A stretch of 64,000 nt of DNA from the NCBI GenBank assembly GCA_011524395.1, contig WTKN01000066.1, positions 1 to 64,000 of the forward strand. The letters are read 5' to 3'. Made by a program: the position numbers and the translations under genes. Source of the DNA: Moorena sp. SS36440bin_2. GTDB taxonomy: Bacteria; Cyanobacteriota; Cyanobacteriia; Cyanobacteriales; Coleofasciculaceae. Position 1 is the first letter of the stretch. Each line of letters opens with the position of its first letter. Below, in pieces: positions 40,740-58,953 of this stretch. The notes below the pieces were generated by a model. The model ran no database searches and was not told the origin of the DNA. It saw only the letters and a list, made by a program, of their open reading frames with translations.

Positions 40740-43700
40740 GTGGTTAAGAATCAGTCTATGTCTAATTCTAAACTTGACATGGCATTGGCCCAGCTCCAAG
40801 ACGACTTGGATAGCTTTGAAAAGAATCTGATCCAACGTATCCAAGGGAAAGACACGATGTCGGATAAATTCACAGAATTAAGCAATATAAACCAAAAACT
40901 GGCACAAACTCCTATCGCCATTATTGGCATGGCATCGCTTCTACCGAAAGCCAGAAATTTGCAGGAATACTGGACGAATATTCTTGAAAAAATCGACTGC
41001 ATTACTGATGTTCCTGCCTCCCACTGGAATGCAGACGACTACTACGATCCAGACCCCAGGGCACCGGACAAAACCTACTGCAAAAGAGGCGGATTTATCC
41101 CACATATCGATTTTAACCCGATGGAGTTTGGGCTCCCTCCGAATATCCTCGAAGTAACAGATGTTTCCCAGCTGTTAAGTCTAGTAGTGGCAAAGGAAGC
41201 GATCGCAGATGCCGGCTATGGCAAATCCCGGGAGTTTAACCGAGAGCGTACTGGGGTTATCCTAGGCTCGGCACTTGCAAAACAACTATCTACACCACTT
41301 TCAGTTAGATTGGAGTATCCGATTTGGGAGAAAGTTCTAAAAAGTAGTGGGTTATCGGATCAGGATACTAAAAAAATTGTCGAAAAGATAAAGCTAGCCT
41401 ATGTGCAGTGGAATGAAAATGCTTTTCCCGGGATGCTAGCTAATGTGATTGCTGGACGAATTGCCAACCGTCTAGATTTGGGGGGAACAAACTGTGTAGT
41501 GGATGCCGCCTGTGCTAGCTCATTAGGTGCTTTAAAAATGGCAATTAGTGAGCTGAGTGAGCATCGCGCTGACATGATGCTCACTGGAGGAGTTGACACC
41601 GATAACTCCCTTGCGGTCTATATGTGTTTCAGCAAAACCCCTGCCCTCTCCCCAAACCAGACTATTAAGCCTTTCGATGCTGAGTCGGATGGGATGATGC
41701 TGGGTGAAGGCATCGGAATCCTGGTACTCAAACGTCTGGAGGATGCTAAGCGAGATAATGACAGAATTTATGCTGTGATCAAAGGTATTGGCACCTCCAG
41801 TGATGGTCGATTTAAAAGCATTTACGCTCCTCGCCCAGAAGGACAAGCGAAAGCGTTGAAGCGTGCTTACGAAGATGCAGGTTTTTCTCCTACCAGTATT
41901 AGCCTGATTGAAGCACATGGTACAGGGACTAGGGCTGGGGATCCCAGTGAATTCCAGGCTCTAAAAGACGTTTTTAGTGAAAACAACCCCAAAAAGCAGT
42001 ATGTTGCTCTCGGTAGTGTTAAATCCCAGATTGGGCATACCAAAGCTGCGGCTGGTGCAGCTAGTCTAATCAAAACTGCCTTGGCTCTACACCACAAAAT
42101 CTTACCACCTACGATTAACATCACCAACCCCAACCCAGCACTGGATATTGATAATTCACCATTTTATTTGAATACTGAAACCCGACCCTGGATTCGCGCT
42201 GAAGGAGATGGGCCAAGGCGTGCTGGTGTGAGTTCCTTTGGCTTTGGTGGCACCAATTATCATGTTGTTCTGGAAGAATATGAACCCGAACATAATAATG
42301 CTTATCGTTTACACCACACTTCCGAGTCTATTCTCCTTTCTGCGCCAACACCGGAGCAATTGTTAGCTCGTTGTGAAGATACCTTACAAAAGTTGCAATT
42401 TAAAACTGGAGAGCAGCACTACCAGAAACTAATTGATAGCTGTAAAGTTGAAGAAATTCCGGTCACTGAAGCCAGAGTGGGATTTGTGGCGGATTCTCTA
42501 ATACAAGCTTGCAGATGCTTACAAACCACTATTAACTGGCTAAAAAAGAAACCACAAGCACAATCGTGGAATCATCCCCAAGGGATCTACTATCGTCAAA
42601 GTGCCATAGAGCTGAAAGGAAAAGTCGTTGCTCTATTTTCAGGGCAAGGTTCCCAGTATCTAGAAATGGGGCGGGAACTAGTGATGAATTTCCCTTGTTT
42701 GCGCGAGACCTATGGTTATATCGATAGTCTGTTCCTCAAGGATAGTTTGAAGCCCGTTTCAGAAACGGTTTTTCCTGCCCCTGTGTTTGATACAGCTCAA
42801 CGGCATATCCAGACTGAAGCACTGCAACGTACAAATTATTCTCAGCCAGCCATCGGAGCCTTCAGTGTTGGTCTTTATAAGATTCTGCAACAAGCAGGAT
42901 TTAAGCCTGATTTTATTGCTGGACACAGCTTTGGAGAACTCACTGCTCTCTGGGCTGCTGAAGTTTTGAGTGATCAGGATTACTTTTTCCTAGTTAAAGC
43001 TAGAGGCCAGGCCATGGCAACCCCAGATGATCCAAATTTTGATCCGGGAGCCATGTTGGCGGTGAACGAAGACTTTAATCGAGTCCAAGAGGTTATTGAT
43101 AGTTTTCCTCAAGTTACCATTGCCAATTTCAATTCCAATTGCCAAGTAGTCTTAGCCGGTTCAACAGCAGAAATTGCGAAGGTACAGCAAGTATTTACTG
43201 AAAAAGGGTATTCTGCTACTTTGCTGCCAGTTTCCGCTGCCTTCCATACTCCTCTGATTGGACATGCCCAAAAAGCGTTTGCTCAAGCCACTGAAGCAGT
43301 TACGTTCAAAAAAGCAAAAATTCCTGTTTATACCAATGTGACTGGGGAGCGTTATCCCACTGAACCCCAAGACATTAAAAACATTTTGGGAGTACATTCA
43401 AGCAAGTCAGTACTGTTCAAGCAGGAAATCGAAACTATTTACAATGCAGGGGGGTATTGCTTTGTTGAGTTTGGACCTCGGAGCATCCTGACCCACTTAG
43501 TAAAGGATATCCTTGGTGATAAACCCCATGTCGCCGTAGCCTTAAACGCGAGTCGTCAACAGGATAGCGATCGCCAATTGCGTCAAGCAGTTATGCAGTT
43601 GCGCGTGGCAGGTTTGCCGTTGAAAAACCTCGACCCCTACCAAATTGAGCCTCCAGCACCCAAGACTGAGGAGAAAAAAGTCCTCAAGTACCGGTTAAAT

Positions 43701-46700
43701 TGCGCTAATTATGTGTCAGAAAAGACGAAAAAGGCTTTTGAACAGGCTTTGCAGGATGGACATCAAGTGACATCTCTTGGTCAGGATAATGGGGCAAGTC
43801 ATGGATCGAAAGTTGAAACTCAACAGACACAAATGGTCAGCAATGGAAATGGGTCTAGCCAGAGCAATGGTCACACAGCTAAGGCCAATGATCAGGGGAG
43901 TTCTTCAACTAAGCTTGTCACTCCGAAACCATTGGTGAGTAATGGAAATGGGTCTAGCCAGAGCAATGGTCACACCCCTAAGGCCAATGATCAACGGAGT
44001 TCTTCAACTAAGTTTGTCACTGCGAAACCATTGGTGAGTAATGGAAATCCGTCTAGCCAGAGCAATGGTCACACCGCTAAGGCCAATTATCAACGGAGTT
44101 CTTCAACTAAGTTTGTCACTGCGAAACCATTGGTGAGTAATGGAAATGGCTCTAGCCAGAGCAATGGTCACACCGCTAAGGCCAATTATCAGGGAAGTTC
44201 TTCAACTAAGCTTGTCACTGCGAAACCATTGGTGAGTAATGGAAATGGCTCTAGCCAGAGCAATGGTCACACCGCTAAGGCCAATGATCAGGGGAGTTCT
44301 TCAACTAAGCTTGTGACTCGATCGACACCATTGGTGAGTAATGGAAATCCGTCTAGCCAGAACAATGGCTTCTGGGCGATCGCCCAGAAGCCAGGAAACA
44401 GGATTGCACTCTCCCCATTCATCCAGCCCACATCTCGGTTACGTCCCATGGAGACTTCTCAGACTAAACCAACATCAAATCCCACTGAACTTACCCAGAA
44501 GCCAAGTGAGCATCTTATGACCTCCTCTGGAAGTAGCACCAATCACAAGTCTGATGCTAAACCAGCACTAGCTCTTACTCAACCGGCTCTTGAATCGAAA
44601 ATGCCCTCAACACCAACCCTATCTCTAAATTCCCAACGTATTTTAGAGAGCTTAGAGCATAGCTTGAAGTTGTTTAGTCAGCATCAAGGTGAAACGTTAC
44701 ATGTTCACGGACAATATCTGAACAATCAGCTGGAATATGCCAAAACCTTTTTCCAACTGATGCAGCAGCAGCATTCCTTGTTTGGCAACAGCAACGGAAC
44801 TGATCAACAAGCGCAAACGAAGCAAGTTGTGATAAAGAGCTTAGAGCGCACTATGATGCAGTTTCACCAGCATCAAGGTCAGACTCTCAACGTCCATGAG
44901 CAATATTTAAACCATCAGCTAGAGTATACCAAGAACTTTTTCCAACTGGTAAAACAGCAGTATCAAGAGGTTCTCAAAGGTGAGGTTGTTGATCAACCAG
45001 GGCTAGAAGCTGGTAATGGTAATCAATTGCTGGGGAAGGAGTTAAACACACAAGCTACTTCTACAACGGTGACAACATCGGTTACTAGTGTTCAGGATAG
45101 TCTCAATAATTTACCATCCACTCCTAAACTGACTACAGAGACCAAAGAAACAAATAAGTTAGTAGAGCAGCAGGATAGCCAAACCTCTGACAATGGGCAA
45201 GTTGTCAACCAAGAGGAAACAGTTAAACCGAATCTCTCTGATAGCTCTAGTAACACAAGTGGATCTATAACTGTTCCTGCTGCTACCCTGGTGAAGGAGC
45301 CAGAGCCAGAGCCAGCTTTAAGCAATGTCTCAAAACCCGTTCAGGAAAGTTTAGAAACTGAAGTCAAGCTTGAGCCAACAGCAAAAGTAGCATCTTCACC
45401 ATCAGCAGCCACGGATATTAATGAGATTAGCCAAACTCTGCTAGATGTGGTTAGCGAGAAAACCGGCTATCCAGCGGAAATGTTAGAGCTGGATATGGAC
45501 ATGGAAGCGGATTTAGGGATTGACTCCATCAAACGGGTGGAAATTCTAGGTGCTTTGCAGGAGCTGAATCCTGATTGGCCTGAAGCTAATCCAGAGCAAC
45601 TTGGAGAACTGCGTACCCTTGGTCAAATCGTGGAGTACCTACAGTCCCATGCTTCCAAGGTTCTCCCTGTCGAAGCTGAAATAACAACTAACACCTCACC
45701 TGAGATAGAAACAATCCAATCTGAGTCAGTAGAGAGTAATGATGTTAAACCAGTTGTAGAAAATCCAGCCGTAGAAACTTCAACTATAGATGTTGAGGCC
45801 ATCAGTCAAACTCTGCTAGATGTGGTTAGCGAGAAAACCGGTTATCCAGCAGAAATGTTAGAGCTGGATATGGACATGGAAGCGGATTTAGGGATTGACT
45901 CCATCAAACGGGTTGAAATTCTAGGTGCTTTGCAGGAGATGAATTCTGATTTGCCTGAAGCCAATCCAGAGCAACTTGGAGAACTGCGTACCCTTGGTCA
46001 AATCGTGGAGTACTTACAGTCGCAGGCTTCCAAGGTTCTCCCTGTCGAACCTGAAATAACACCTAACACCTCAGCTGAGATAGAAACAATCGAATCTGAG
46101 TCAATCGAATCTGAGTCAATCGAATCTGAGTCAGTAGAGAGTAATGATGTTAAACCAGTTGTAGAAAATCAAGCCCTAAACACTTCAACACCATTAACAG
46201 CTATAGATGTTGAGGCCATCAGTCAAACTTTGCTAGATGTGGTTAGCGAGAAAACCGGCTATCCAGCGGAAATGTTAGAGCTGGATATGGACATGGAAGC
46301 GGATTTAGGGATTGACTCCATCAAACGGGTGGAAATCCTAGGCGCTCTACAGGAGATGAGCCCTGATTTGCCTGAAGCGAATCCAGAGCAACTTGGAGAA
46401 CTGCGCACTCTTGGTCAAATTGTTGAGTATCTTCAACAGCAGACAGTTACGACTGAAAAAAAAGAGTTCCAGAACCAGCCTTTTAATGAGCAACTTGACC
46501 TAGATCATAATATTCCACGCTGTTTAGTAAAACTGAAAGCTCTGCCTGATCCAGATAGTTTGGATTTCACTTTACCTGACAAACATATTGTTTTGTTAAC
46601 CGATGATGGTTCACTAACTACATCGAAACTGGCTCAATCCCTAACAGAGCGTGACTGGAAAGTGGTGGTCTTAAGTTTTCCCCAATCCCTAATTGCAGAA

Positions 46701-47234
46701 CAAGCATCTTTACCCAAAGCAGTTAGTCGTATTGTGTTGAACGATTTGAGTGAGGAGCATTTGAAACAACAATTGGCAGCCATTACTGCTAACTATGGTT
46801 CCGTTGGTGCATTCATTCATCTCAATCCTGCGATTCAGATCCAGCCCAATCATGGGATTGGCTTTCTTGAGCTAGAAAAAGCTCTTCTTAAGCAGGTTTT
46901 TTTGATTGCCAAACATCTCAAACCATCACTGAATGAAGCCGCACGTCAAGGACGGAGTTGTTTCATGACTGTTGCTCGTCTTGATGGAGCGTTTGGTTTA
47001 GCACAAAACGTGAACTTTGGTGCAATTGGTGCAGGTCTATTTGGATTGACTAAAACCCTCAACCTTGAATGGGAATCGGTATTTTGCCGGGGCATTGACC
47101 TAAGTCCTGACCTAAATGCTGAGGAGTCGGCTGAGTATATCATGGCTGAACTTCATGATCCCAACCGTTATATTGCCGAAGTTGGATATAGTTCACAGGG
47201 GCGAGTCACCCTGGGTACTGAACAATCTATCTGA
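40740..47234 (+). CDS. hglE: Hgl/Pfa-type lipid synthase: KS-AT-ACP-ACP-ACP-KR structural half
   Basis: This 2164-aa iterative synthase numbers from a GTG; an ATG six codons on (40758) is equally plausible. KS (about 57-515) has Cys258 (VDAACASS), His393 (EAHGTGTRAGDP) and His433 (QIGHTKAAAG). AT (about 628-960) has Ser730 in GHSFGE. A long linker contains 33-aa repeats (about 1035-1210) and two related 45-aa helical repeats (about 1300-1405). Three nearly identical ACPs carry the arm on Ser1596, Ser1721 and Ser1860 (each GIDSIKRVEILGALQE). The C-terminal 250 aa are the non-catalytic half of a ketoreductase, ending GRVTLGTEQSI. The KS resembles HglE of heterocyst glycolipid synthesis and PfaA of PUFA synthases. 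The catalytic KR half is in the next gene. Confidence 0.92.
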   Translation: MVKNQSMSNSKLDMALAQLQDDLDSFEKNLIQRIQGKDTMSDKFTELSNINQKLAQTPIAIIGMASLLPKARNLQEYWTNILEKIDCITDVPASHWNADDYYDPDPRAPDKTYCKRGGFIPHIDFNPMEFGLPPNILEVTDVSQLLSLVVAKEAIADAGYGKSREFNRERTGVILGSALAKQLSTPLSVRLEYPIWEKVLKSSGLSDQDTKKIVEKIKLAYVQWNENAFPGMLANVIAGRIANRLDLGGTNCVVDAACASSLGALKMAISELSEHRADMMLTGGVDTDNSLAVYMCFSKTPALSPNQTIKPFDAESDGMMLGEGIGILVLKRLEDAKRDNDRIYAVIKGIGTSSDGRFKSIYAPRPEGQAKALKRAYEDAGFSPTSISLIEAHGTGTRAGDPSEFQALKDVFSENNPKKQYVALGSVKSQIGHTKAAAGAASLIKTALALHHKILPPTINITNPNPALDIDNSPFYLNTETRPWIRAEGDGPRRAGVSSFGFGGTNYHVVLEEYEPEHNNAYRLHHTSESILLSAPTPEQLLARCEDTLQKLQFKTGEQHYQKLIDSCKVEEIPVTEARVGFVADSLIQACRCLQTTINWLKKKPQAQSWNHPQGIYYRQSAIELKGKVVALFSGQGSQYLEMGRELVMNFPCLRETYGYIDSLFLKDSLKPVSETVFPAPVFDTAQRHIQTEALQRTNYSQPAIGAFSVGLYKILQQAGFKPDFIAGHSFGELTALWAAEVLSDQDYFFLVKARGQAMATPDDPNFDPGAMLAVNEDFNRVQEVIDSFPQVTIANFNSNCQVVLAGSTAEIAKVQQVFTEKGYSATLLPVSAAFHTPLIGHAQKAFAQATEAVTFKKAKIPVYTNVTGERYPTEPQDIKNILGVHSSKSVLFKQEIETIYNAGGYCFVEFGPRSILTHLVKDILGDKPHVAVALNASRQQDSDRQLRQAVMQLRVAGLPLKNLDPYQIEPPAPKTEEKKVLKYRLNCANYVSEKTKKAFEQALQDGHQVTSLGQDNGASHGSKVETQQTQMVSNGNGSSQSNGHTAKANDQGSSSTKLVTPKPLVSNGNGSSQSNGHTPKANDQRSSSTKFVTAKPLVSNGNPSSQSNGHTAKANYQRSSSTKFVTAKPLVSNGNGSSQSNGHTAKANYQGSSSTKLVTAKPLVSNGNGSSQSNGHTAKANDQGSSSTKLVTRSTPLVSNGNPSSQNNGFWAIAQKPGNRIALSPFIQPTSRLRPMETSQTKPTSNPTELTQKPSEHLMTSSGSSTNHKSDAKPALALTQPALESKMPSTPTLSLNSQRILESLEHSLKLFSQHQGETLHVHGQYLNNQLEYAKTFFQLMQQQHSLFGNSNGTDQQAQTKQVVIKSLERTMMQFHQHQGQTLNVHEQYLNHQLEYTKNFFQLVKQQYQEVLKGEVVDQPGLEAGNGNQLLGKELNTQATSTTVTTSVTSVQDSLNNLPSTPKLTTETKETNKLVEQQDSQTSDNGQVVNQEETVKPNLSDSSSNTSGSITVPAATLVKEPEPEPALSNVSKPVQESLETEVKLEPTAKVASSPSAATDINEISQTLLDVVSEKTGYPAEMLELDMDMEADLGIDSIKRVEILGALQELNPDWPEANPEQLGELRTLGQIVEYLQSHASKVLPVEAEITTNTSPEIETIQSESVESNDVKPVVENPAVETSTIDVEAISQTLLDVVSEKTGYPAEMLELDMDMEADLGIDSIKRVEILGALQEMNSDLPEANPEQLGELRTLGQIVEYLQSQASKVLPVEPEITPNTSAEIETIESESIESESIESESVESNDVKPVVENQALNTSTPLTAIDVEAISQTLLDVVSEKTGYPAEMLELDMDMEADLGIDSIKRVEILGALQEMSPDLPEANPEQLGELRTLGQIVEYLQQQTVTTEKKEFQNQPFNEQLDLDHNIPRCLVKLKALPDPDSLDFTLPDKHIVLLTDDGSLTTSKLAQSLTERDWKVVVLSFPQSLIAEQASLPKAVSRIVLNDLSEEHLKQQLAAITANYGSVGAFIHLNPAIQIQPNHGIGFLELEKALLKQVFLIAKHLKPSLNEAARQGRSCFMTVARLDGAFGLAQNVNFGAIGAGLFGLTKTLNLEWESVFCRGIDLSPDLNAEESAEYIMAELHDPNRYIAEVGYSSQGRVTLGTEQSI
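43842..44372 (+). repeat. 99-bp tandem repeat, five to six copies, in the synthase linker
   Basis: Units begin at 43842, 43941, 44040, 44139, 44238 and 44340 (period 99, last step 102). Each encodes a Ser/Asn/Gly-rich unit around SNGNGSSQSNGHTAKAN. The period is a multiple of three, so copy changes keep frame. It forms a flexible spacer between AT and ACPs. Confidence 0.9.
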
Positions 47235-47845
47235 ATATAGTGTTTGAGTACTGAGTGCTCAGTTTGACTAGTGGCAAAAATTAGGGTGCATCTTACCAAA
47301 CTGGAACAATCAACCAACACGTTGAAGATGTTACGGCGGTTTGCATATAGCAATTCTACGACTTGTGAGGTACAAATCTCTGGGAGGGAGCAGGAAGCAG
47401 GGAGCAGGGAATAGGGAGCAGGGAGCAGGGAGCAGGGAGCAGGGAATAGGGAGCAGGGAATAGGGAGCAGGGAATAGGGAGCAGGGAATAGGGAATAGCG
47501 AAAAAATAATGTGTACCTCATAGCTACGATAAACGCTATCTTACGCTTTGTTAAATAGAATGAATAAGCTTTAAAGCAGGCAAGATAGCCCGTTATATAA
47601 GTGAAGTTTATTGTTTAAAATACGGCAAAAAATAATTAAAAGTTCCTGTTTTTAGGTTAATAAGTCAGTAATAATACGATAGGATTATTTGCTTAAACTG
47701 TCCTATCGTGTCTTATGGATGCTTGCTTTAAAAATGTGGCTTGCTCCCTAACCAAGTGCCACAAACTATAGTTTTACACCCCTGACAATAAAAGTTAAAA
47801 ATAGTAACTATTTATCAATTAAATATAAAATTATTGGAAAATTTT
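47235..47845. other. 600-bp spacer splitting the ketoreductase, with GGAGCAGG minisatellite
   Basis: The stretch between the two halves of the KR contains a GGGAGCAGGGAATAG-type array (about 47393-47500) and AT-rich DNA. It has no gene and no clear mobile-element ends. The TTG at 47834 and ATG at 47846 restart the frame. Confidence 0.7.
47393..47500. repeat. GGGAGCAGGGAATAG minisatellite
   Basis: Roughly a dozen copies of GGGAGCA and GGGAATA alternate. A sister array of GGGAGCAGGGACCAG occurs at about 55650-55750. Confidence 0.85.
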
Positions 47846-49567
47846 ATGTTCGAAACAGCTCAAATCAGTCAATCATCAGTGTTTCTTGTCAGTGGCGGAG
47901 CAAAAGGGATTACCGCTGAGTGCGTGATTCGGATAGCACAGCAGCAACCATGCAAATTTATTCTACTGGGTCGTTCATCAATCATGACAGATGAACCAGC
48001 TTGGGCAAAGGATTGTTTTCATGAATCTGAATTGAAAAAACGGATTATGGAAAATATCCTTGCCCAAGGACAGAAGCCTACCCCGATGGAAGTACAACGG
48101 ATATTTAAGACAATTGTTTCGAGTCGAGAAATTCACAAAACTCTCTTGGCAATTGAACAGGCAGGCGCTCAGGCAGACTATATTGATGTTGATGTAACCG
48201 ATGCTCTAGCCTTACAGGAAAAGGTGGCAACTGTCGTTGAGCGCATGGGTCCAATTACCGGTATTATCCACGGAGCAGGGGTTTTAGCGGATAAATTAAT
48301 TGAAAAGAAATCGGAACAAGATTTTGAGACCGTTTATGCTACCAAAGTAAAGGGTTTGGAAAATCTGCTGAGTTGCTTCAGCCCAGGTCAACTGGATTAT
48401 TTAGTTCTATTTTCTTCTGTAGCTGGTTTTTACGGAAATATCGGTCAGTCGGACTATGCGATCGCAAATGAAATTCTCAACAAATCAGCTCATCTGGTCA
48501 AGCAACACCATCCCTCCTGCCATGTGGTTGCCATAAATTGGGGACCTTGGGACAGTGGTATGGTGACTGCGGAACTAAAGAAGGCGTTTGCTAAGCGCAA
48601 CGTTGAAATTATTCCGATCCCAGTGGGGACAAACATGCTAGTTAAGGAACTGGATACTGCCAATCAGGAAACGGCGCAAGTAGTGATTGGCACTCCAATG
48701 GAACCGGTATTCCGGGAGTTAAACCCTGAGTTACAAACCTATCGTATTCGCCGCAAGTTGACACTGGAAGCTAATCCCTTTTTACAAGATCACGTGATTG
48801 GGGGTTATCCAGTATTGCCAGCTACTTGTTGCGTAGGATGGATTATTAATGCCTGTGAACAACTGTATCCGGGTTACAAATTCTTCAGTTACACAAATTT
48901 CAAGGTCTTGAAAGGGATTATTTTCAATGATAATCTCGCAAGCGAATATGTTCTAGATCTAAAAGAAATTGCTAAGAACGACGATTCAATAGAATTTGAA
49001 GGAAAGATCTGGACTAAAAAAGAACAAAGTAAAATTCCTTATCATGAGCATTATCGGGCTACTATTAAGCTAGTCAGAGAAATCCCTAGTGCTCCCACTT
49101 ATGAGGACGTTAACATTGAAGAAGATCCGAGAATTGCTGAACAGGTTGAATACCCATTATATCAAACTGGAAAATACACGTTATTTCATGGTCCTTCCTT
49201 TTGGGGAGTGAACAAGATATTGAATCTGACTCCTGAAAAAGTGACTACAGAATGTGCTTGGCAATCTATTAGTTATCGACAACAAGGACAGTTTAAAGTT
49301 CAAACTTTCAATCCCTATATTGCTGATCTTCAGACACACTCTAATGGGATTTTAATTTATGCTTTTCATCAAGAGCAGTTGTTACCTTCCCAATCGGAAA
49401 AGTTTGAACAATTTGCCATGATTCCACCCGACGAAACGTTTTATATATCTACCGAACTACGATCTAAAATCAGTAATAAAGTTCAGGCTGATATCATAGC
49501 CCATAATCGTGAAGGAAAAATGTACTCCCGTTGGGTTGGCTGGAAAGGAACAATTTTTCCTCTATAG
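47846..49567 (+). CDS. Ketoreductase catalytic half plus dehydratase (KR-DH)
   Basis: I start at ATG 47846 (573 aa); an upstream TTG adds four residues. Residues about 8-270 are the NADPH-binding catalytic KR half: FLVSGGAKGITAECVIRIAQ, the catalytic Ser/Tyr/Asn set in LFSSVAGFYGNIGQSDYAIANEIL, and INWGPWDSGMV. From about 310 on comes a PUFA-synthase-type double-hotdog dehydratase with catalytic His316 (DHVIGGYPVLPATCC) and a second hotdog half (PLYQTGKYTLFHGPSFWG). In PfaA-type proteins the KR halves are one polypeptide; here the break falls exactly between them. It must act with the product of the upstream gene. Confidence 0.9.
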   Translation: MFETAQISQSSVFLVSGGAKGITAECVIRIAQQQPCKFILLGRSSIMTDEPAWAKDCFHESELKKRIMENILAQGQKPTPMEVQRIFKTIVSSREIHKTLLAIEQAGAQADYIDVDVTDALALQEKVATVVERMGPITGIIHGAGVLADKLIEKKSEQDFETVYATKVKGLENLLSCFSPGQLDYLVLFSSVAGFYGNIGQSDYAIANEILNKSAHLVKQHHPSCHVVAINWGPWDSGMVTAELKKAFAKRNVEIIPIPVGTNMLVKELDTANQETAQVVIGTPMEPVFRELNPELQTYRIRRKLTLEANPFLQDHVIGGYPVLPATCCVGWIINACEQLYPGYKFFSYTNFKVLKGIIFNDNLASEYVLDLKEIAKNDDSIEFEGKIWTKKEQSKIPYHEHYRATIKLVREIPSAPTYEDVNIEEDPRIAEQVEYPLYQTGKYTLFHGPSFWGVNKILNLTPEKVTTECAWQSISYRQQGQFKVQTFNPYIADLQTHSNGILIYAFHQEQLLPSQSEKFEQFAMIPPDETFYISTELRSKISNKVQADIIAHNREGKMYSRWVGWKGTIFPL

Positions 49568-49768: not shown

Positions 49769-52700
49769 ATGAATAAAATAGCAATAATTGGATTTTCTTG
49801 CCTTTTTCCAGATGCCAAAAATCCAGAAGAATTCTGGAATAATCTGATTAACGGAAAAGATTCAACTTCAGTATTAAGTGAGGATGACATAGGACTTGAC
49901 CCGGCAATTTTTTTTAATCCATTAAAAAATCAACCGGATAAAACATACTCCTTAAGGGGAGGATATATCCGAGATTTTACGTTTGATGCCACTGGATACA
50001 ACTTGCCTTCAGAAGTCCTTGAAGGGTTAGATCCTCTCTTCCAAGGGTGCCTGTATGTTACCAAACAAGCACTGCAACATAGTAATTATTTGAGCAATGA
50101 CAGGGTGCTGTCAAAGTCGGGTGTAATTCTTGGTAATGTCTCAACCCTTACTCAACTCTCGAATCAACTATTTATATCGATTTATGAGCAGACCATTGAA
50201 GCTGCACTTCGGGAGCTTTTGCAGAATGAAAACTTCCAGTTAGCAAAATTACCGAAATCTGCCAAATTATCTCTGTATAATGGCATGAGCTATGGTGCGG
50301 TATCAGCCTTAGTCGCTCAAGCTTTTTCTCTATCCGATATTAACTATACCCTAGACTCTACCTGTTCCTCATCACTGTATGCAGTGAAATTGGCAAGTCA
50401 TTACCTACTCTCCCACAAAGCTGATTTGATGTTAGCGGGAGGGGTTAGTTATAGCGATCCAATTTTCGCTCGGATGCTATTTTCTGGTATTCACGCTTAC
50501 CCGGAAAATGATGTCAGCCGACCATTAGATCAATCTTCCCAAGGTCTAACCCCAGCAGATGGGATTGGTATGGTGGTGCTCAAGCGATACAGTGATGCGA
50601 TTCGAGATGGCGATCAAATTTATGGGACAATCTGTGGTAATGGATTATCTAATGATGGTCGGGGAAAGCACCTGCTGAGTCCGAACCCCCGAGGGCAAAT
50701 GTTAGCCTATGAACGAGCCTATACTGAGGCACAGATTAGTCCAAAGAGCATCGATTATTTAGAATGCCATGCTACTGGTACTCCCCTTGGTGATACCACT
50801 GAACTTGGCTCTGTTGATAGCTTCTTTGGTCCGCATCAAGCTTCTATGCTGGTGGGTTCTGTGAAGTCTAATCTGGGTCATTTGGTCACTGCTTCTGGCA
50901 TGGCTAGCATCATTAAAGTCATTTTGAGTATGTCTAAGGGTGTAATACCCCCGACCATTAATATCACGAATCCCCTCAGCTCTCCTAATAATGTGATTGC
51001 AGCGGACCAAGTGGTTCGAACTGCAACTCCCTGGCCGAGCAATAGACCGCTTAAACGGGCAGCCATTAATACCTTCGGTTTTGGCGGAAATAATGCTCAT
51101 TTGATTCTTGAGCAATCCACTCAGGTCGAAGAAATCCCTGATGTTGAAGCGGAACCCTCTACACCCGTGCCAGCTACTAAGATAGCGATTGTGGGCATGG
51201 ACAGCTTTTTTGGCTCCTGTGATGGTTTGGATCAGTTTGAGCGCAGTATTTATGATGGAACCCAGCATTTTATCCCCGTTCCTAACCAGCGCTGGAAGGG
51301 AATTGACGAGGAAGAGCAATTGCTCAAGGACTATGGCTTTACAGACGGTAAAGCACCCATAGGCGCTTACATCCAAGATTTTGACATTGACTCATTACGG
51401 TTTAAGATACCGCCCAATGAAGCAGACACACTCAACCCTAAACAACCGCTAATGCTTAAGGTAGCGGATCGTGCCTTGAAAGACGCAGGACTAAGTGAGG
51501 GGGAAAATGTGGCAGTGATTATCGCTGCAGAAAGCGAACTTACTGGTCACCAGCTTCAGGAGCGATGGCATTTGTCTTGGCAACTCAAAAAAAGTTTTGT
51601 TGACACGAATGAATCCTTAGTCTCTGAAGCTATCGATACCCTAGAAGGCATTGTTAAAGATAGCATGCACGAGCAGGCAAAAAGCAGTGACTATCTAGGT
51701 TACCTGGGTGCGATCACAGCCAGTCGTATTTCTGCTCTGTGGGATTTCAACGGACCTTCCTTCACCCTCGGTGTTGGGGAAAATTCCACCTTCAAAGCTC
51801 TAGAAACAGCACAACTATTACTCGCTGCTGGGGAGGTAGATGCGGTAGTTGTGGGTGCTGTTGACCTAGCTGGGGGCGCGGAAAATGTTTTGTTGCGAAA
51901 CCAATTGGCTAAGGTCAACACAGGAGTCAATACCCTAAGTTACGACCAAAACACTAATGGCTGGATGGTTGGTGAAGGGGCTGGCGCTGTGGTTTTAAAG
52001 CGTCTTGATACAGCCAAGCAAGACCAAGACCGTATTTATGCAGTGATTGATGCCATCAGTTTGGTACAACGCCGTAGCACATCAGACCAGGCCAATACTT
52101 TCCCGCAACCGCCTCTGGCTGAAACTGTTATACAAGCCTGTGAACAGGCTCATACTCAAGCAGAAATCACACCTGGGGATATTGGCTATTTAGAAGTGTT
52201 TGGTAGTGGAGTCGCTCAGGAGGATGAGGCAGAGATTCGCGGATTAACCCAAGCGTATCAAACTCCCAAGCCTGATTTAAGCTGTGCAATAGGTAGTGTC
52301 AAGGCAAATATTGGTCATACCTATGTTGCTTCAGGAATTGCTAGCTTAATCAAAACTGCACTCTGTGTCTATCACCGGTATATTCCAGGAACACCTCAAT
52401 GGACTGCTCCTAAAATGCCCGAGGTTTGGCAAGGTAGTCCATTTTATGTGGCAAGTGCATCAAGACCTTGGCTTTTACCACCAGAGAGCACTAAACGAGT
52501 AGCAGCAATTAACGGTATGGGACTGGAGGGGACTTATGCCCATATAGTTTTGTCAGAGGAACAGAGTCAGTGCGATCGCAAGAGCAGCTATTTGGAACAA
52601 ACACCGTTTTATCTGTTTCCCATTGCTGCTGATGGTCAATCGGAGTTATTCGAGCAGCTGCATAATTTAGAACAAACTATCGAAAATTGTGTTTCTCTAT

Positions 52701-54520
52701 CTACTGCTGCTCGCCAAACCTTTGCCACGTTTAAAAAACGTTCTCAGGCCACTTATACCCTAGCAATTCTGGGACACAACAACGATGAATTAAAACGAGA
52801 GATCCAGCGTGCAATTAAGGGGATTCCCAAGGCTTTTGATACAGGTAAAGACTGGCAAACCCCTGTGGGAAGCTATTTTACAGCTAAACCACTGGCTAAA
52901 CGAGGTACCGTTGCATTTGTTTATCCCGGTGCTTTCAATTCCTATATCGGACTAGGTCAGAATATTTTTCGACTGTTTCCCAAAGTCTACAACGAGGCAG
53001 ATCAACATATCACCAATATCGCTTTGCTCCTGAGGGAAAAACTTTTTTATCCAAGGAGCTTAAATGCCTTATCCAGAAAGCAACTGGAAGTCCTTGAACA
53101 GCGACTGTTAGATGATTCCCATAGCATGCTCACATCTGGAATTTGCTTTGTTAGAATCTTGACCATCATCATGAGGGATTATTTCAAAGTTCAGCCTGAA
53201 TCTACCTTTGGGTACAGCCTAGGGGAACTTAGTATGATGATTGGTCAGTCAGTCTGGACTAACTATGAAGAGGCGATCGATGGCTTAAGCTCCTCTGAGA
53301 TATTTCGCAAAAGACTATCTGGTCCTAAAAACGCAGTTCGCGACTATTGGGGATTACCCCAAGGCAACGATGATCAGCACAAACAAATTTGGAGTACCTA
53401 TGTTCTGATCACTCCGGTAGCCCAAGTTGTGGAATATCTCAAACATGAGAATCGGGTCTATCTTACTCATATCAATACGCCAAAAGAAGTGGTAATTGCT
53501 GGTGATCCTCAAGCTTGTCGGAGGCTGATTGACACTCTCAAATGCGATGCCTTCCGTGCTCCTGCCGATGATGTACTTCATTGTGACGCCATGGCTTCTG
53601 AATACCATGAACTTGCCAGACTCACCAGTTTACCTATCGGCAACCAACCAGAGACTATTTTTTATTCTGCAGCCGACTACAAACCCATTACCCTTGAAAG
53701 CCATGCCATTGGCCATGCTATCGCCAAGGGTCTTTGTCAGCCCCTCGATTTTCCTCGGCTAATTAACCAAGTCTACGACAATGGAGCCAAGATCTTTGTG
53801 GAGATAGGCGCTGGCAGTACTTGTTCTAGATGGATTCGTGAAAACCTCAAGGATAAGGAAAATGTCACCGTTTCCCTCAATAAAAGAGGTTCAAATGACC
53901 ATACCTCTATTGTCAAAGCCTTGGCCAAGCTAGTTAGTCATCAAGTCTCTCTGGATTTGTCTGCGCTGTATACTCAGGAAGCAGAAAATGCGGGTCAGCG
54001 GCGCTCAATGGTTAAAACCATAACCTTGGGTGGGAGCCGGATTAAGTCCAGCATTTTGAGCAATACTAACCAGGAAATTGCTGAAACTTTATCGTCAAAT
54101 GTCTTAATTCATAAGACTTGGGAACAGCCACAAACTTTACCCAATTTTGAAGCATCTGAACCCATAACTTCATCAAACTTTCAAAGTACTGTCCTAAACG
54201 ATGAAAATAGTGATAAGTGTGCTTTAAATTACAGCCTTGCAAGCACTAAAAAAATAAACTATGGCCAGGCTATTAAAATCCCCCTAGAGAATAAAAAATA
54301 CAGTCTAGAATTAGACAAAGAAAGTAATAATTTTGGCCTGGAAGTAACCCTAAGCGAATTACACAAGACTCAGTATAAAAACCTGAGTTATAATACATCT
54401 CGCATCACCAAAAACCATTCTGCTTTTTTAAGGAATCAAGAAGAATCCTTGAAGCAAATTGGTGACATTATTCAGCACCAAGTAACGTTTTCAAAGCAGT
54501 TACTTGATTCTGAATCATAA
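49769..54520 (+). CDS. KS-chain length factor-acyltransferase (PfaC N-terminus plus PfaB-like)
   Basis: In this 1583-aa protein the KS (1-455) has Cys199 (DSTCSSSLYAVK), His334 (ECHATGTPLGD) and a later NLGHLVTASG. A chain length factor (about 470-935) follows; its nucleophile is replaced by Glu671 (LGVGENSTFK) and its first histidine motif is lost (FGSGVAQED). An AT domain (about 1045-1390) has Ser1150 in GYSLGE rather than GHSxGE. The tail (about 1430-1583) is Asn/Ser-rich and ends in a helical motif, HSAFLRNQEESLKQIGDI. Pfa/Hgl systems use KS-CLF to set chain length. The dehydratases that follow KS-CLF in PfaC are absent; DH is supplied by the previous gene. Confidence 0.9.
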   Translation: MNKIAIIGFSCLFPDAKNPEEFWNNLINGKDSTSVLSEDDIGLDPAIFFNPLKNQPDKTYSLRGGYIRDFTFDATGYNLPSEVLEGLDPLFQGCLYVTKQALQHSNYLSNDRVLSKSGVILGNVSTLTQLSNQLFISIYEQTIEAALRELLQNENFQLAKLPKSAKLSLYNGMSYGAVSALVAQAFSLSDINYTLDSTCSSSLYAVKLASHYLLSHKADLMLAGGVSYSDPIFARMLFSGIHAYPENDVSRPLDQSSQGLTPADGIGMVVLKRYSDAIRDGDQIYGTICGNGLSNDGRGKHLLSPNPRGQMLAYERAYTEAQISPKSIDYLECHATGTPLGDTTELGSVDSFFGPHQASMLVGSVKSNLGHLVTASGMASIIKVILSMSKGVIPPTINITNPLSSPNNVIAADQVVRTATPWPSNRPLKRAAINTFGFGGNNAHLILEQSTQVEEIPDVEAEPSTPVPATKIAIVGMDSFFGSCDGLDQFERSIYDGTQHFIPVPNQRWKGIDEEEQLLKDYGFTDGKAPIGAYIQDFDIDSLRFKIPPNEADTLNPKQPLMLKVADRALKDAGLSEGENVAVIIAAESELTGHQLQERWHLSWQLKKSFVDTNESLVSEAIDTLEGIVKDSMHEQAKSSDYLGYLGAITASRISALWDFNGPSFTLGVGENSTFKALETAQLLLAAGEVDAVVVGAVDLAGGAENVLLRNQLAKVNTGVNTLSYDQNTNGWMVGEGAGAVVLKRLDTAKQDQDRIYAVIDAISLVQRRSTSDQANTFPQPPLAETVIQACEQAHTQAEITPGDIGYLEVFGSGVAQEDEAEIRGLTQAYQTPKPDLSCAIGSVKANIGHTYVASGIASLIKTALCVYHRYIPGTPQWTAPKMPEVWQGSPFYVASASRPWLLPPESTKRVAAINGMGLEGTYAHIVLSEEQSQCDRKSSYLEQTPFYLFPIAADGQSELFEQLHNLEQTIENCVSLSTAARQTFATFKKRSQATYTLAILGHNNDELKREIQRAIKGIPKAFDTGKDWQTPVGSYFTAKPLAKRGTVAFVYPGAFNSYIGLGQNIFRLFPKVYNEADQHITNIALLLREKLFYPRSLNALSRKQLEVLEQRLLDDSHSMLTSGICFVRILTIIMRDYFKVQPESTFGYSLGELSMMIGQSVWTNYEEAIDGLSSSEIFRKRLSGPKNAVRDYWGLPQGNDDQHKQIWSTYVLITPVAQVVEYLKHENRVYLTHINTPKEVVIAGDPQACRRLIDTLKCDAFRAPADDVLHCDAMASEYHELARLTSLPIGNQPETIFYSAADYKPITLESHAIGHAIAKGLCQPLDFPRLINQVYDNGAKIFVEIGAGSTCSRWIRENLKDKENVTVSLNKRGSNDHTSIVKALAKLVSHQVSLDLSALYTQEAENAGQRRSMVKTITLGGSRIKSSILSNTNQEIAETLSSNVLIHKTWEQPQTLPNFEASEPITSSNFQSTVLNDENSDKCALNYSLASTKKINYGQAIKIPLENKKYSLELDKESNNFGLEVTLSELHKTQYKNLSYNTSRITKNHSAFLRNQEESLKQIGDIIQHQVTFSKQLLDSES

Positions 54521-54537: not shown

Positions 54538-55416
54538 ATGAAGCGTAAAACACTATTTGTATTGACTTGGGTATCTACCATCGTTCTAATTCTATGCTGG
54601 GTGTTACCTACAAATGCCTTCAACGAGTTCTACCGCAACGGACTCAGAGGACACAGTACCTTTCATTACGAATTTACTCGCACCTTAATGCGGGGAGCGG
54701 GTTTCTCGCCAGAATTGGCAGAACAGATTGCAGTTACCAATCAAGCTGTGGACTCAGTTAACTTTACAGGTTACACCGGCACTAACGTGCGTCTCAGGAA
54801 AACCCTTCGTCAGGGTCAGTACAGTAAATACTGGCACTTTCCCCGACGGGGTTGCAATGATTCATTCGGTGTGTCCTATCCCACTGAGGCCAGCGAATGC
54901 AACACTTGCAACTACTTCACCGACAGTTCCGACTCCTGTCCAAGGGGAATCCCAGAGTTAAAGACCATGGACCAGTGGGCTCTTTACGGCAATTCTGACG
55001 ATCTGCTGGTAACGCCTAAATACTCTTTGAATCGTCGGAGATTCAAAACTGTACCGGCAAGCTCTATCACGGCTTTAGCGATTTTTCTCCATTCCCTTGC
55101 TGATTCCTATTCCCATGAAGCCTGTATGGAAAGCATGCAGCTGCGGGAGCACAAACCATCTCCTGCAGAGTGCAATGTCTTGCTCTGGCATCTGGATTTA
55201 GAGTTTGGTGGTGGTGATGCAGGTGTGCCCTATACCAAAAATGCTGGTCGTGCTGTCTTTAAGGCGGCCGTACAGTATATAGCCCAGAACCGAGAAGGTG
55301 GTGATCAGCTGTGGAGCTTTGATGAGGCGAACCACTTTATTGAGAAGTTTGCTGAAATCGAATCTCCTGATGAGCGTGCCCAATTTGCTATAGACACCTA
55401 CAATAATCTCTTATAA
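54538..55416 (+). CDS. Secreted zinc phospholipase C / P1-nuclease-like protein
   Basis: This 292-aa protein begins 17 bases after the KS-CLF-AT stop, so it is almost certainly co-transcribed with the synthase. A signal peptide covers about 1-27 (KRK, hydrophobic core, PTNA). The mature part is helical with spaced metal ligands: His39 and His43 (GHSTFHYEF), His185-x3-Asp189-x3-His193 (HSLADSYSHE) and His218-x3-Glu222 (HLDLE). These resemble the trinuclear zinc site of bacterial phospholipase C and P1 nuclease. Four cysteines (about 106-134) could form disulfides. I do not know the exact family. An extracytoplasmic hydrolase acting on the lipid product or on its acceptor is the working idea; a catalytic role is unproven. 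Confidence 0.6.
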   Translation: MKRKTLFVLTWVSTIVLILCWVLPTNAFNEFYRNGLRGHSTFHYEFTRTLMRGAGFSPELAEQIAVTNQAVDSVNFTGYTGTNVRLRKTLRQGQYSKYWHFPRRGCNDSFGVSYPTEASECNTCNYFTDSSDSCPRGIPELKTMDQWALYGNSDDLLVTPKYSLNRRRFKTVPASSITALAIFLHSLADSYSHEACMESMQLREHKPSPAECNVLLWHLDLEFGGGDAGVPYTKNAGRAVFKAAVQYIAQNREGGDQLWSFDEANHFIEKFAEIESPDERAQFAIDTYNNLL

Positions 55417-55473
55417 CCTGAGAAAACTATTAATAGGGTAAACTTCTGTAGCAATTAACTAGTCTAATTTGAG

Positions 55474-55524
55474 ATCAAGTCTGGTAGCGCTAAAACCAAA
55501 TTAAAATAAGCTATCAGACTTGAT
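55474..55524. other. 15-bp imperfect hairpin after the PLC-like gene
   Basis: ATCAAGTCTGGTAGC (55474-55488) pairs with GCTATCAGACTTGAT (55510-55524) with one mismatch around a 21-nt AT-rich loop. No T-tract follows; it may slow transcription or stabilise the upstream mRNA. Confidence 0.55.
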
Positions 55525-55649
55525 ATTACCAAAGTTTTGATAGGTAAAGCGATTTGCAATTCAGTTAGGTAAAAACTTCTAGGTTTTTAGGAAGCAGCGA
55601 TGCAGCGCGGTCTTGGGGGTTTCCCCCATGAGCGACTGCATCAAGACGG

Positions 55650-55750
55650 GAGCAGGGAGCAGGGACCAGGGACCAGGGACCAGGGACCAGGGAGCGGGGA
55701 AGTGGGAAGTGGGAAGTGGGAAGTGGGAAGTGGGAAGTGGGAAGTGGGAA
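55650..55750. repeat. GGGACCA / GTGGGAA minisatellites
   Basis: An array of GGGAGCA and GGGACCA units (about 55650-55697) passes into about seven copies of AGTGGGA (55699-55750). The 432-base spacer (55417-55848) holds this, the hairpin at 55474, and otherwise AT-rich DNA with no gene. Confidence 0.85.
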
Positions 55751-55848
55751 AACAATCCTGTATACCTGATAGTTATGCAAACCACCGTAACTATAATATA
55801 ACTGTCACATAAATTAATAATTAATTAACAATAATTAGCTGTATTATA

Positions 55849-57543
55849 ATGACTCAAACTAGCTCTAAACCAATAAAAGCTTTAGATAAAAATCTAAGTA
55901 AAAATAATAATGAAACTAATAAAATCGGATTTTTAAATTGTTTTTATGGTCAAAATCAAGGTTGGCAAGGGTCTTTGGATGGGATAGCATTTGATGATCG
56001 AGGCATTAAGGCTAAACTGCTAGATTTAGATAAATCCTGTTATATTGTTAGATCCCAAGGACAGATTGGCGTAACCCAAGAAGGGTACTGGTATCCTTCC
56101 GAAAATGGCAAAAGCTCTCAAATAGAACTGCTGATGGCAGTTCCACCAATACAAATTCAACAGTTAGGCGATCCCAGTTTTTTATCCTTTCATGGGGTAA
56201 AATCTGCCTATGTTACTGGAGCGATGGCTGGTGGAATTGCATCCGAGGAAATGGTCATTGCTCTCGGCAAAGAGAAAATTTTGAGTTCATTTGGTGCTGG
56301 GGGATTAAGTCCTTCCCGCCTGGAAGCAGCTATTAAACGTATTCAACAAGCCTTACCCCAAGGTCCCTACGCCTTTAATTTAATTCATAGTCCCAGTGAA
56401 CCTGCCATTGAACGCCATGCTGTTGATCTATTTATCAAATATGGTGTTCACACTGTAGAAGCGTCTGCATTTCTAGATTTAACTCCCAACATTGTTTATT
56501 ATCGAGCTGCTGGATTAGGACTGAATACAGCTAATCAAATCGAAATCAAAAACAAAGTTATTGCTAAAATTTCCAGAAGAGAAGTTGCTGTAAAATTTCT
56601 CCAGCCTGCTCCAAAACAAATCCTTAAAAAACTTGTTGAGCAGGGATTAATCAGTGAGCTACAGGCAACTTTGGCAGAAAAAGTTCCCATGGCAGACGAT
56701 ATCACCGTAGAAGCTGATTCAGGTGGTCATACAGATAATCGGTCTTTGGTTTGTCTGTTACCTTCTATCTTGGAATTGAGGGATGAAATTCAGGAAAAAT
56801 ATGGTTATCAAAACCCGATTCGAGTTGGAGCTGCTGGTGGTATTGGTACGCCACAATCAGCCTTAGCTGCTTTTATGATGGGTGCGGCTTATGTTATGAC
56901 TGGATCTATTAATCAGTCTTGCCTTGAAGCTGGAACATCTCAACATGCTAAGGAAGTGTTGGCTAAAGCTGATATGACTGATGTCACCATGGCTCCAGCA
57001 GCAGATATGTTTGAAATGGGGGTAAAACTTCAAGTCCTCAAAAAAGGCACCCTCTTCCCCCTACGGGCCCAGAAACTATTTGAGTTATATAGAAGCTATG
57101 ACTCGATTGAAGCTATTCCTATCGAGGAAAGAGAAAAACTGGAAAAACAAATTTTCAAGAGAAAAATCGAAGCTATCTGGGAGGATACAATAGCTTATAT
57201 ATCCAAACGAAATCCTGATAAAATAAAACAAGCTGCCAATAATCCTAAGGTAAAAATGGCTCTGATTTTTCGCTGGTACCTAGGATTGTCATCGCGTTGG
57301 TCCAAGTCAGGGGAGAACGGCAGAGAAATCGATTATCAGATTTGGTGCGGACCTGCAATGGGCAGCTTTAATAACTGGGTGCAAGGGTCTTACCTCGCTG
57401 CTCCAAATAATCGCAGTGTGGTTGATGTGGCTCACCACATCATGAATGGGGCTGCATTTTTACACCGAATACAGAGTTTAAAAATTCAAGGACTCCAAAT
57501 GCCAGATTACTACAGTCAGTATCGCCCAGTTCCTCTTTCCTAA
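55849..57543 (+). CDS. pfaD: PfaD-type enoyl reductase
   Basis: This 564-aa FMN-dependent TIM-barrel protein (2-nitropropane dioxygenase-like) reduces enoyl intermediates for the synthase in trans. Family signatures are plain: FHGVKSAYVTGAMAGGIASE near 120, GAGGLSPSRLEAAIKRIQ, HSPSEPAIERHAVDLFIKYG, the FMN-phosphate region RVGAAGGIGTPQSALAAFMM near 325, and VMTGSINQSCLEAGTS. Length fits PfaD. It follows the PLC-like gene by 432 bases and is followed by a diiron oxygenase. With PfaD present the chain can be partly or fully reduced, as in PUFA and heterocyst-type lipids. Confidence 0.93.
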   Translation: MTQTSSKPIKALDKNLSKNNNETNKIGFLNCFYGQNQGWQGSLDGIAFDDRGIKAKLLDLDKSCYIVRSQGQIGVTQEGYWYPSENGKSSQIELLMAVPPIQIQQLGDPSFLSFHGVKSAYVTGAMAGGIASEEMVIALGKEKILSSFGAGGLSPSRLEAAIKRIQQALPQGPYAFNLIHSPSEPAIERHAVDLFIKYGVHTVEASAFLDLTPNIVYYRAAGLGLNTANQIEIKNKVIAKISRREVAVKFLQPAPKQILKKLVEQGLISELQATLAEKVPMADDITVEADSGGHTDNRSLVCLLPSILELRDEIQEKYGYQNPIRVGAAGGIGTPQSALAAFMMGAAYVMTGSINQSCLEAGTSQHAKEVLAKADMTDVTMAPAADMFEMGVKLQVLKKGTLFPLRAQKLFELYRSYDSIEAIPIEEREKLEKQIFKRKIEAIWEDTIAYISKRNPDKIKQAANNPKVKMALIFRWYLGLSSRWSKSGENGREIDYQIWCGPAMGSFNNWVQGSYLAAPNNRSVVDVAHHIMNGAAFLHRIQSLKIQGLQMPDYYSQYRPVPLS

Positions 57544-57726: not shown

Positions 57727-58953
57727 ATGCTAAAAACCCATAAAGCACCAGAAAAAGGAAGTCAATTTTCAACTCCATCAGACAAGGTTGTCCATGGTCG
57801 CAAGAATCTTAAGCTGATGGATGTTAATTATCGGCGTAACACTGAGTCAGATTACACCGAAAAAATAGAGGAGTTGTATAAAAACTTTGATTATAGCAGC
57901 AATAGCGATTATTACTGGGGTGAACCTGAGCTTTCACTGCTGTACGGTAGCCCCCTCTATGAAGCGGCTTCACCCTCACAACAAAAAGCTCTAAATCATC
58001 TCTATTGGGCTTTGAATTACTATTTAATTGCTGCGACTGAAACGAATACAATTTTATTCAATGAAGTGACAGCAAATGCGTTCTTTCCCTTTGATGATTA
58101 CGAAGTTCTCTGCCATGCCCTAGACGTTGAAACTAATCAAGAACGTTACCATGTTCGTGCCTTTAACACTATTGGTAGTAAGACAGAGTTAGCCCTAATG
58201 GGCGAAACAGTTTTTCATTGTGCTAGGTCAACCAAACCTAAGGATATAGATAAAACCTTAGCTGCCTTCAAAGGGATGGGTGGACGTACAAGCTTTCCTT
58301 TGGCAATGCAAGTGTACACCATCAGTATCAGTAATTCTCCTTTTCTAGCGAGCCAGTACTATACTGCCCGTGGGATTGGCAATTTAAATCTCAAAAATAA
58401 GGAATATACTTTTTCCCAGTTATATAAGAGATTAGAGAAAAATGGTGAGTTTATTCCGGCTCCCACAGCAGTTTCTCGTTATCATCTACTAGACGAAAGT
58501 TTCCACACCGCAACGTCTCAGTTAATGTCCCACGAAATCTATAAGGATTTCCCTGAGCCAAACCTGTGGGAGAAGCACATTGGTAATCAAACAATCTACA
58601 GGTTACAAATCGATGTGTTTAATGGGCTATCTACTACACTCCCTGGTACCTTTGGTGGAAATCTTATGCCTATGGTGTATAAGCTCTTGCAAACACCTCT
58701 ATTTGGGATGTCTAAGCAAGACGCACTACTGATGATGGAGAAGTGTTTCTGTCAGGAACATGAAGGCTTACATGTGGCAGCTAAATATCACCAGCGTCTT
58801 CTATCGGATATCCGCAAGTTTCTCGAAGGTCTAGACTATTTGTCACCTGTTAATCGCGAGATGCGTCTGATGGCTTCATCCGGTTCACTTGAAAAAGCTG
58901 TCGCAAATAACATTCGAGAGTTTAAACAGTTCTCGAGATCCGTTAAGCGTTAG
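57727..58953 (+). CDS. AurF-like diiron oxygenase
   Basis: This 408-aa helical ferritin-like enzyme has a two-iron ligand set visible as Glu105, Glu135, Glu139-x2-His142 (ERYH), Glu257-x2-His260 (ESFH) and Glu346-x2-His349 (EGLH). The pattern is that of the AurF family, which oxidises amines to nitro groups, although members with other substrates are known. It lies 61 bases before a [2Fe-2S] ferredoxin, the natural electron donor, and 183 bases after pfaD. Its likely substrate is the acyl chain on a carrier or the released lipid; hydroxylation, desaturation or chain cleavage are all possible. I do not claim N-oxygenation. Confidence 0.78.
   Translation: MLKTHKAPEKGSQFSTPSDKVVHGRKNLKLMDVNYRRNTESDYTEKIEELYKNFDYSSNSDYYWGEPELSLLYGSPLYEAASPSQQKALNHLYWALNYYLIAATETNTILFNEVTANAFFPFDDYEVLCHALDVETNQERYHVRAFNTIGSKTELALMGETVFHCARSTKPKDIDKTLAAFKGMGGRTSFPLAMQVYTISISNSPFLASQYYTARGIGNLNLKNKEYTFSQLYKRLEKNGEFIPAPTAVSRYHLLDESFHTATSQLMSHEIYKDFPEPNLWEKHIGNQTIYRLQIDVFNGLSTTLPGTFGGNLMPMVYKLLQTPLFGMSKQDALLMMEKCFCQEHEGLHVAAKYHQRLLSDIRKFLEGLDYLSPVNREMRLMASSGSLEKAVANNIREFKQFSRSVKR

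What the first reader, a model, noticed from the sequence alone, without database searches (positions are those of the whole stretch)
54538..55416. Secreted metal-site protein embedded in the lipid-synthase operon
A signal-peptide protein starts 17 bases after a megasynthase gene and before pfaD. His185-x3-Asp189-x3-His193 and His218-x3-Glu222 match the spacing idea of zinc phospholipase C/P1 nuclease. Secreted hydrolases are not standard members of PUFA or Hgl clusters. It could hydrolyse or transfer the lipid headgroup outside the membrane.
Basis: partly seen in the sequence, partly recalled or inferred. Interest (0 to 1): 0.7.

Follow-up and report, generated by a model that had tools for sequence, protein, structure and literature searches.

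The report
Dispensable DUF6765-like protein in Moorena lipid-synthase island
A small, probably exported, metal-site protein really sits between two lipid-synthase genes of a marine cyanobacterium, but most of it has been deleted in three of the five related genomes compared while the synthase genes stayed whole, so it is an optional extra rather than a needed part of the lipid pathway.

Summary
The gene is real: 292 codons at 54538-55416, 17 bases after a KS-type megasynthase gene and before pfaD, with a signal-like N-terminus, H185-x3-D189-x3-H193 and H218-x3-E222. It is a weak but above-cut-off match to Pfam DUF6765, not to the S1-P1 nuclease or zinc phospholipase C models. DUF6765 also gives matching positions H43, D72 and (by eye) H100, so a PLC/P1-like zinc site is plausible. 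Its spacing is that of DUF6765 (11 of 11 members), not of S1-P1 nucleases (0 of 7). No fold could be established (AlphaFold pLDDT 34 and 37). The link to the lipid pathway is weak: relatives of this protein were found only in the window's genus, Moorena by named records; in 3 of 5 genomes two different deletions leave only the first 94-104 residues while synthase and PfaD stay full length; 7 of 7 other hgl-like islands examined have no gene at this place; none of 12 other DUF6765 loci read lies beside synthase or PfaD genes. Most likely it is a genus-specific accessory exported metalloprotein, probably a phosphoester hydrolase, dispensable and being lost. A strain-variable tailoring role stays possible but unsupported.

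The parts
49769..54520 (+). KS/CLF/AT-type megasynthase gene (1583 aa) just upstream; full length in all five genomes of the genus compared
   Evidence: Pfam ketoacyl-synthase, weak acyltransferase; TIGR02816 pfaB_fam 154.3 bits over the 144.3 cut-off; comparison
54538..55416 (+). the finding: DUF6765-like, probably exported, putative metalloprotein, 292 aa
54538..54618 (+). signal-peptide-like N-terminus, residues 1-27 (by eye; likely cut after TNA)
   Evidence: no signal-peptide predictor available
54661..54774 (+). stretch matching DUF6765 positions 5-42, with H43 and D72
55090..55116 (+). H185-x3-D189-x3-H193 metal-type motif, aligned with the invariant DUF6765 motif
55189..55203 (+). H218-x3-E222, possible second half of the site
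   Evidence: not matched in DUF6765
55417..55848 (+). 432-base gap to pfaD with 7-base tandem repeats (55648-55750) whose sequence is dispersed in many copies through genomes of the genus; the gap is largely absent where the gene is truncated
55849..57543 (+). pfaD; full length in all five genomes of the genus compared
   Evidence: TIGR02814 670.9 bits

Best explanation
A genus-specific accessory gene, lodged between the synthase gene and pfaD of a Moorena hgl/PUFA-like island, that encodes an exported DUF6765-like protein. Inferred: it binds zinc through H43, D72, H100, H185, D189, H193, H218 and E222 or D227, as in the PLC/P1 type of trinuclear zinc site, and hydrolyses a phosphoester in the periplasm or outside the cell. 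Shown: where it is broken, by two different deletions within the genus, the synthase and PfaD reading frames are still whole. It is therefore best read as a dispensable passenger that shares a locus with the lipid genes, not as a core pathway enzyme.
For: DUF6765 match, 31.4 bits against a cut-off of 26.6. H43, D72, H185, D189 and H193 fall on columns shared with DUF6765; in 11 DUF6765 proteins H, D, H, H-x3-D-x3-H, H and D follow in one invariant order. Deletions: SIO3H5 keeps residues 1-96, SIO3I8 (= G003) 1-94 and G001 1-103 in alignment; junctions differ between SIO3H5 and the SIO3I8/G001 pair. Full-length synthase (1583 residues aligned) and PfaD in L002, L003, L004 and in G001. SIO3H5 groups with the window and G001 with SIO3I8 (100 and 99 support, unrooted DNA tree), so at least two losses. 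Relatives found in 4 of 57 genomes, all of this genus; 0 of 7 other islands have an ORF of 90 codons or more between the synthase-position gene and pfaD. No PfaA, KR-DH, synthase, PfaD or 408-codon-gene relative within the held flanks of 12 DUF6765 loci.
Against: The protein tree with an outgroup does not recover SIO3I8 + G001 as a clade (68 support for another order), so the number and direction of events is not fully settled. The 17-base spacing to the synthase gene is kept in all five genomes, and the remnants keep an open N-terminal frame with dN below dS, which could mean retained translation or simply recent loss. The window copy against M. bouillonii has dN/dS 0.37, below 1. SIO3H5 and SIO3I8 are metagenome assemblies. 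The zinc site, export, enzymatic activity and substrate are untested, and only 38 residues carry the best DUF6765 stretch.
Confidence: 0.68

Rival explanations
1. It is a true, strain-variable tailoring enzyme of the island: strains with the whole gene trim or transfer a phosphate-linked headgroup on the exported lipid, strains with the remnant make the unmodified lipid.
For: Same strand, 17 bases behind the synthase gene, in the same place in all five genomes of the genus; the non-heterocystous hgl islands have variable composition and lack hglT (passages of PMC11804610).
Against: Lost in 3 of 5 genomes without visible damage to synthase or PfaD; absent from 7 of 7 other islands; DUF6765 relatives not near such genes.
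Confidence: 0.15
2. It is a member of the zinc PLC / P1 nuclease fold acting on nucleic acid or phospholipid outside the cell, unrelated to the lipid island.
For: Order of His/Asp positions resembles the PLC/P1 ligand list (recalled, not from a call); low-confidence models are all helix.
Against: No match to the S1-P1 or Zn_dep_PLPC Pfam models; H-x3-D-x3-H instead of the H-x3-D-x5-H of 7 of 7 S1-P1 proteins; likely mature N-terminus F28, not the Trp whose main chain binds zinc in S1 nuclease. The fold itself was not testable here.
Confidence: 0.12
3. The reading frame is a non-functional relic of an acquired gene in every strain, the window included.
For: Repeated loss in the genus; dN/dS 0.37 overall and 0.49 in residues 97-291, not low.
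Against: Whole frame kept in two species with all named metal residues and six cysteines after residue 27 conserved; dN/dS below 1.
Confidence: 0.05

Closest known systems
Pfam PF20551 DUF6765
   Same: 31.4 bits, above the 26.6 cut-off; H-x3-D-x3-H and upstream H and D in register
   Different: Only 21-24% identity in a gapped alignment; match in two short stretches; P0001 has a signal-like N-terminus, a cysteine-rich middle, is shorter, and lacks the G-H-G ... P-D motif
S1-P1 nuclease (PF02265)
   Same: Exported protein with several His/Asp metal-type residues in a similar order
   Different: No Pfam match; spacing x3 not x5; no N-terminal Trp
Zn_dep_PLPC (PF00882)
   Same: H-x3-D motif; one cyanobacterial member (L081) also has H-x3-D-x3-H
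   Different: No Pfam match; profile comparison gave nothing, with a failed control
hgl/PUFA-like islands of non-heterocystous cyanobacteria (PMC11804610)
   Same: Flanking PfaA-like, KR-DH, KS/CLF/AT and PfaD genes
   Different: The intervening gene is absent in 7 of 7 islands compared

Membership tests
DUF6765 (PF20551) | Pfam gathering score | tested here: met
   31.4 against 26.6 bits, two short stretches
DUF6765 (PF20551) | invariant H, D and H-x3-D-x3-H | tested here: met
   H43, D72, H185, D189, H193 aligned; 11 of 11 members have the motif
DUF6765 (PF20551) | G-H-G ... P-D motif after it (G-H-G in 11 of 11 members, with D eight residues after the H) | tested here: not met
   P0001 has W-H218-L-D-L-E222 and D227 instead
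S1-P1 nuclease (PF02265) | Pfam score | tested here: not met
   no match up to E 10
S1-P1 nuclease (PF02265) | H-x3-D-x5-H | tested here: not met
   7 of 7 S1-P1 proteins have it, P0001 does not
S1-P1 nuclease (PF02265) | mature N-terminal Trp as zinc ligand | tested here: inconclusive
   likely mature N-terminus is F28, cleavage site read by eye; feature from PMC5201275 passages
S1-P1 nuclease (PF02265) | shared fold | tested here: inconclusive
   AlphaFold pLDDT 33.9 and 37.1; no fold search run on such models
Zn_dep_PLPC (PF00882) | Pfam score | tested here: not met
   no match up to E 10
Zn_dep_PLPC (PF00882) | three bound zinc ions and phospholipase activity | not testable with these tools
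   needs protein
hgl/PUFA-like island core gene | present and whole wherever the island is | tested here: not met
   whole in 2 of 5 genomes of the genus, absent from 7 of 7 other islands

The most novel reading that the evidence does not exclude
A strain-variable, exported zinc hydrolase of a new DUF6765 branch remodels the headgroup of the island's lipid, so that its repeated loss within one genus produces two lipid types from otherwise equivalent synthases.
Probability: 0.08. Interest if true: 0.6.

Novelty: new variant of a known kind. Interest (0 to 1): 0.25.

Why it matters
It keeps an attractive but unsupported tailoring step out of the model of these hgl-like islands: the gene is optional even within one genus. 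It also places a divergent, exported member next to DUF6765, a family of unknown function for which one full-text search found no paper, and offers natural gene-loss strains in which any effect on the lipid can be tested directly.

Tried and rejected
AlphaFold twice: P0001 with its M. bouillonii relative (pLDDT 33.9) and residues 28-292 alone (37.1); both too poor, so no fold search was run. PDB sequence searches with P0001 (0 matches) and with seven DUF6765 proteins (one chance match, E 1.6). NCBIfam, PADLOC and PHROGs: nothing useful for P0001. Viral contigs, phages and plasmids: no relative of P0001 (one search gave only weak phage tail matches in 11 records, E 0.2-0.9, taken as chance); two viral scans for DUF6765 found none. 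A two-row profile over 386 cyanobacterial genomes gave 16 matches at E <= 0.1, one of them the window itself; the other 15 (best E 0.002) were short partial stretches, several with stops, and dropped as chance. hhalign of P0001/DUF6765 against S1-P1 and PLPC proteins was negative, but S1-P1 against PLPC was negative too, so it decides nothing. For that comparison and for I used 7 of the 8 S1-P1 loci (L079 dropped, my script took the wrong frame) and 2 of the 6 PF00882 loci. The N-terminal Trp pattern was found in 6 of those 7 (L076 was cut at an internal Met). A codon script stopped with an error after printing its main table. Considered and rejected: lipoprotein (no fitting lipobox by eye around C20); chance motif (shared with DUF6765).

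Full report
What is there. The 292-codon frame at 54538-55416 starts 17 bases after a 1583-codon KS/CLF/AT-type gene and 432 bases before pfaD. Upstream lie a PfaA-like gene (40740-47234) and a KR-DH gene (47834-49567). Such hgl-like islands in non-heterocystous cyanobacteria, with the genus Moorea named, are described in PMC11804610 (passages read).

Family. Pfam gives one match, DUF6765, at 31.4 bits against a cut-off of 26.6, in two short stretches. No match to S1-P1 nuclease or Zn_dep_PLPC appeared even at E 10. In alignment with cyanobacterial DUF6765 proteins, H43, D72, H185, D189 and H193 fall on shared columns, and again with a further distant member (L015) and a Vibrio plasmid member. 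Among 11 DUF6765 proteins (seven cyanobacterial, four from plasmids) the invariant His and Asp are D4, H6, D35, D62, H79, H135, D139, H143, H187 and D195. I match H100 (Y-W-H-F-P) to H79 (P-F-H-F-L-P) by eye; the aligners did not place it so. The order resembles the PLC/P1 zinc ligands as I recall them. The spacing does not: H-x3-D-x3-H is in 11 of 11 DUF6765 proteins and in 0 of 7 S1-P1 proteins, which have H-x3-D-x5-H in 7 of 7. The third motif of P0001, H218-x3-E222, resembles PLC/P1 (recalled) more than DUF6765. The fold could not be tested: both AlphaFold runs were poor, and the profile comparison failed its own positive control.

Distribution. P0001 relatives were found in 4 of 57 related genomes, all in the window's genus, and in 3 loci of the genome collection, all Moorena (close relatives only). 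A DUF6765 search rang in 9 of 292 cyanobacterial genomes, the window's included. PfaD was found in 11 of 57 related genomes, 4 of them of this genus.

Loss within the genus. Five distinct genomes were compared: the window's, M. bouillonii (= G002), SIO3H5, SIO3I8 (= G003) and G001; the matches of names to handles rest on equal contig lengths. The gene is whole in two. In SIO3H5 the frame follows the window to residue 96 and ends after four other residues; the deletion runs into the downstream repeats. In SIO3I8 it stops after residue 94, and in G001 the frame is 104 residues; these two share another junction. All three lack H185 to E222. In the same loci the synthase aligns over all 1583 residues and PfaD over its full length. 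A DNA tree of three flanking genes groups the window with SIO3H5 and SIO3I8 with G001 (100 and 99 support); a protein tree with an outgroup does not keep the latter pair together (68 support for another order). That the short form is the derived one follows from DUF6765: its invariant positions lie on both sides of the deletion. Whole copies have dN/dS 0.37 (window against M. bouillonii); the flanking synthase has 0.44 and PfaD 0.20, so the intact copy is no less constrained than the synthase.

Context elsewhere. In seven other hgl-like islands (six related genomes and a second island of G001) no ORF of 90 codons or more lies between the gene in the synthase position and pfaD (in L070 that gene gave no match to the window's synthase, and in L068 and L071 it is split). 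Twelve DUF6765 loci (flanks 1 to 4 kb) hold no relative of PfaA, KR-DH, synthase, PfaD or the 408-codon gene. One of them (L008) has a GMC-oxidoreductase C-terminal domain and an alpha/beta hydrolase beside it, so a lipid context of another kind may exist there.

Verdict. The best reading is an optional, genus-specific, exported DUF6765-like putative metalloprotein that sits in the island without being a core part of it. Export, metal binding, catalysis and substrate are inferred.

Noticed in passing
window 55548-55800: The gap before pfaD holds 7-base tandem repeats (GGGACCA, GGGAAGT) and sequence that recurs dozens of times in each of four genomes of the genus (48 to 67 matches per genome to the gene-plus-gap query).
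   Followed up: partly
L087 3031-5074, L088 3061-5065, L090 60-2065: On Aeromonas, Vibrio and Photobacterium plasmids DUF6765 follows two small genes of unknown function (about 220 and 90 codons), a three-gene cassette; neighbours include ThiF/Mov34 and restriction genes.
   Followed up: partly
L069 (G001:C2:752000-766000): G001 carries a second hgl-like island with a PfaD 68% identical to the window's.
   Followed up: no
window 57727-58953: A 408-codon gene after pfaD, conserved in the genus, matches no Pfam or NCBIfam family.
   Followed up: no
window 54538-54825: Residues 1-96 are identical between the window and SIO3H5 with dS 0.015, against 0.070 in the synthase gene, which may mean recent exchange.
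   Followed up: no
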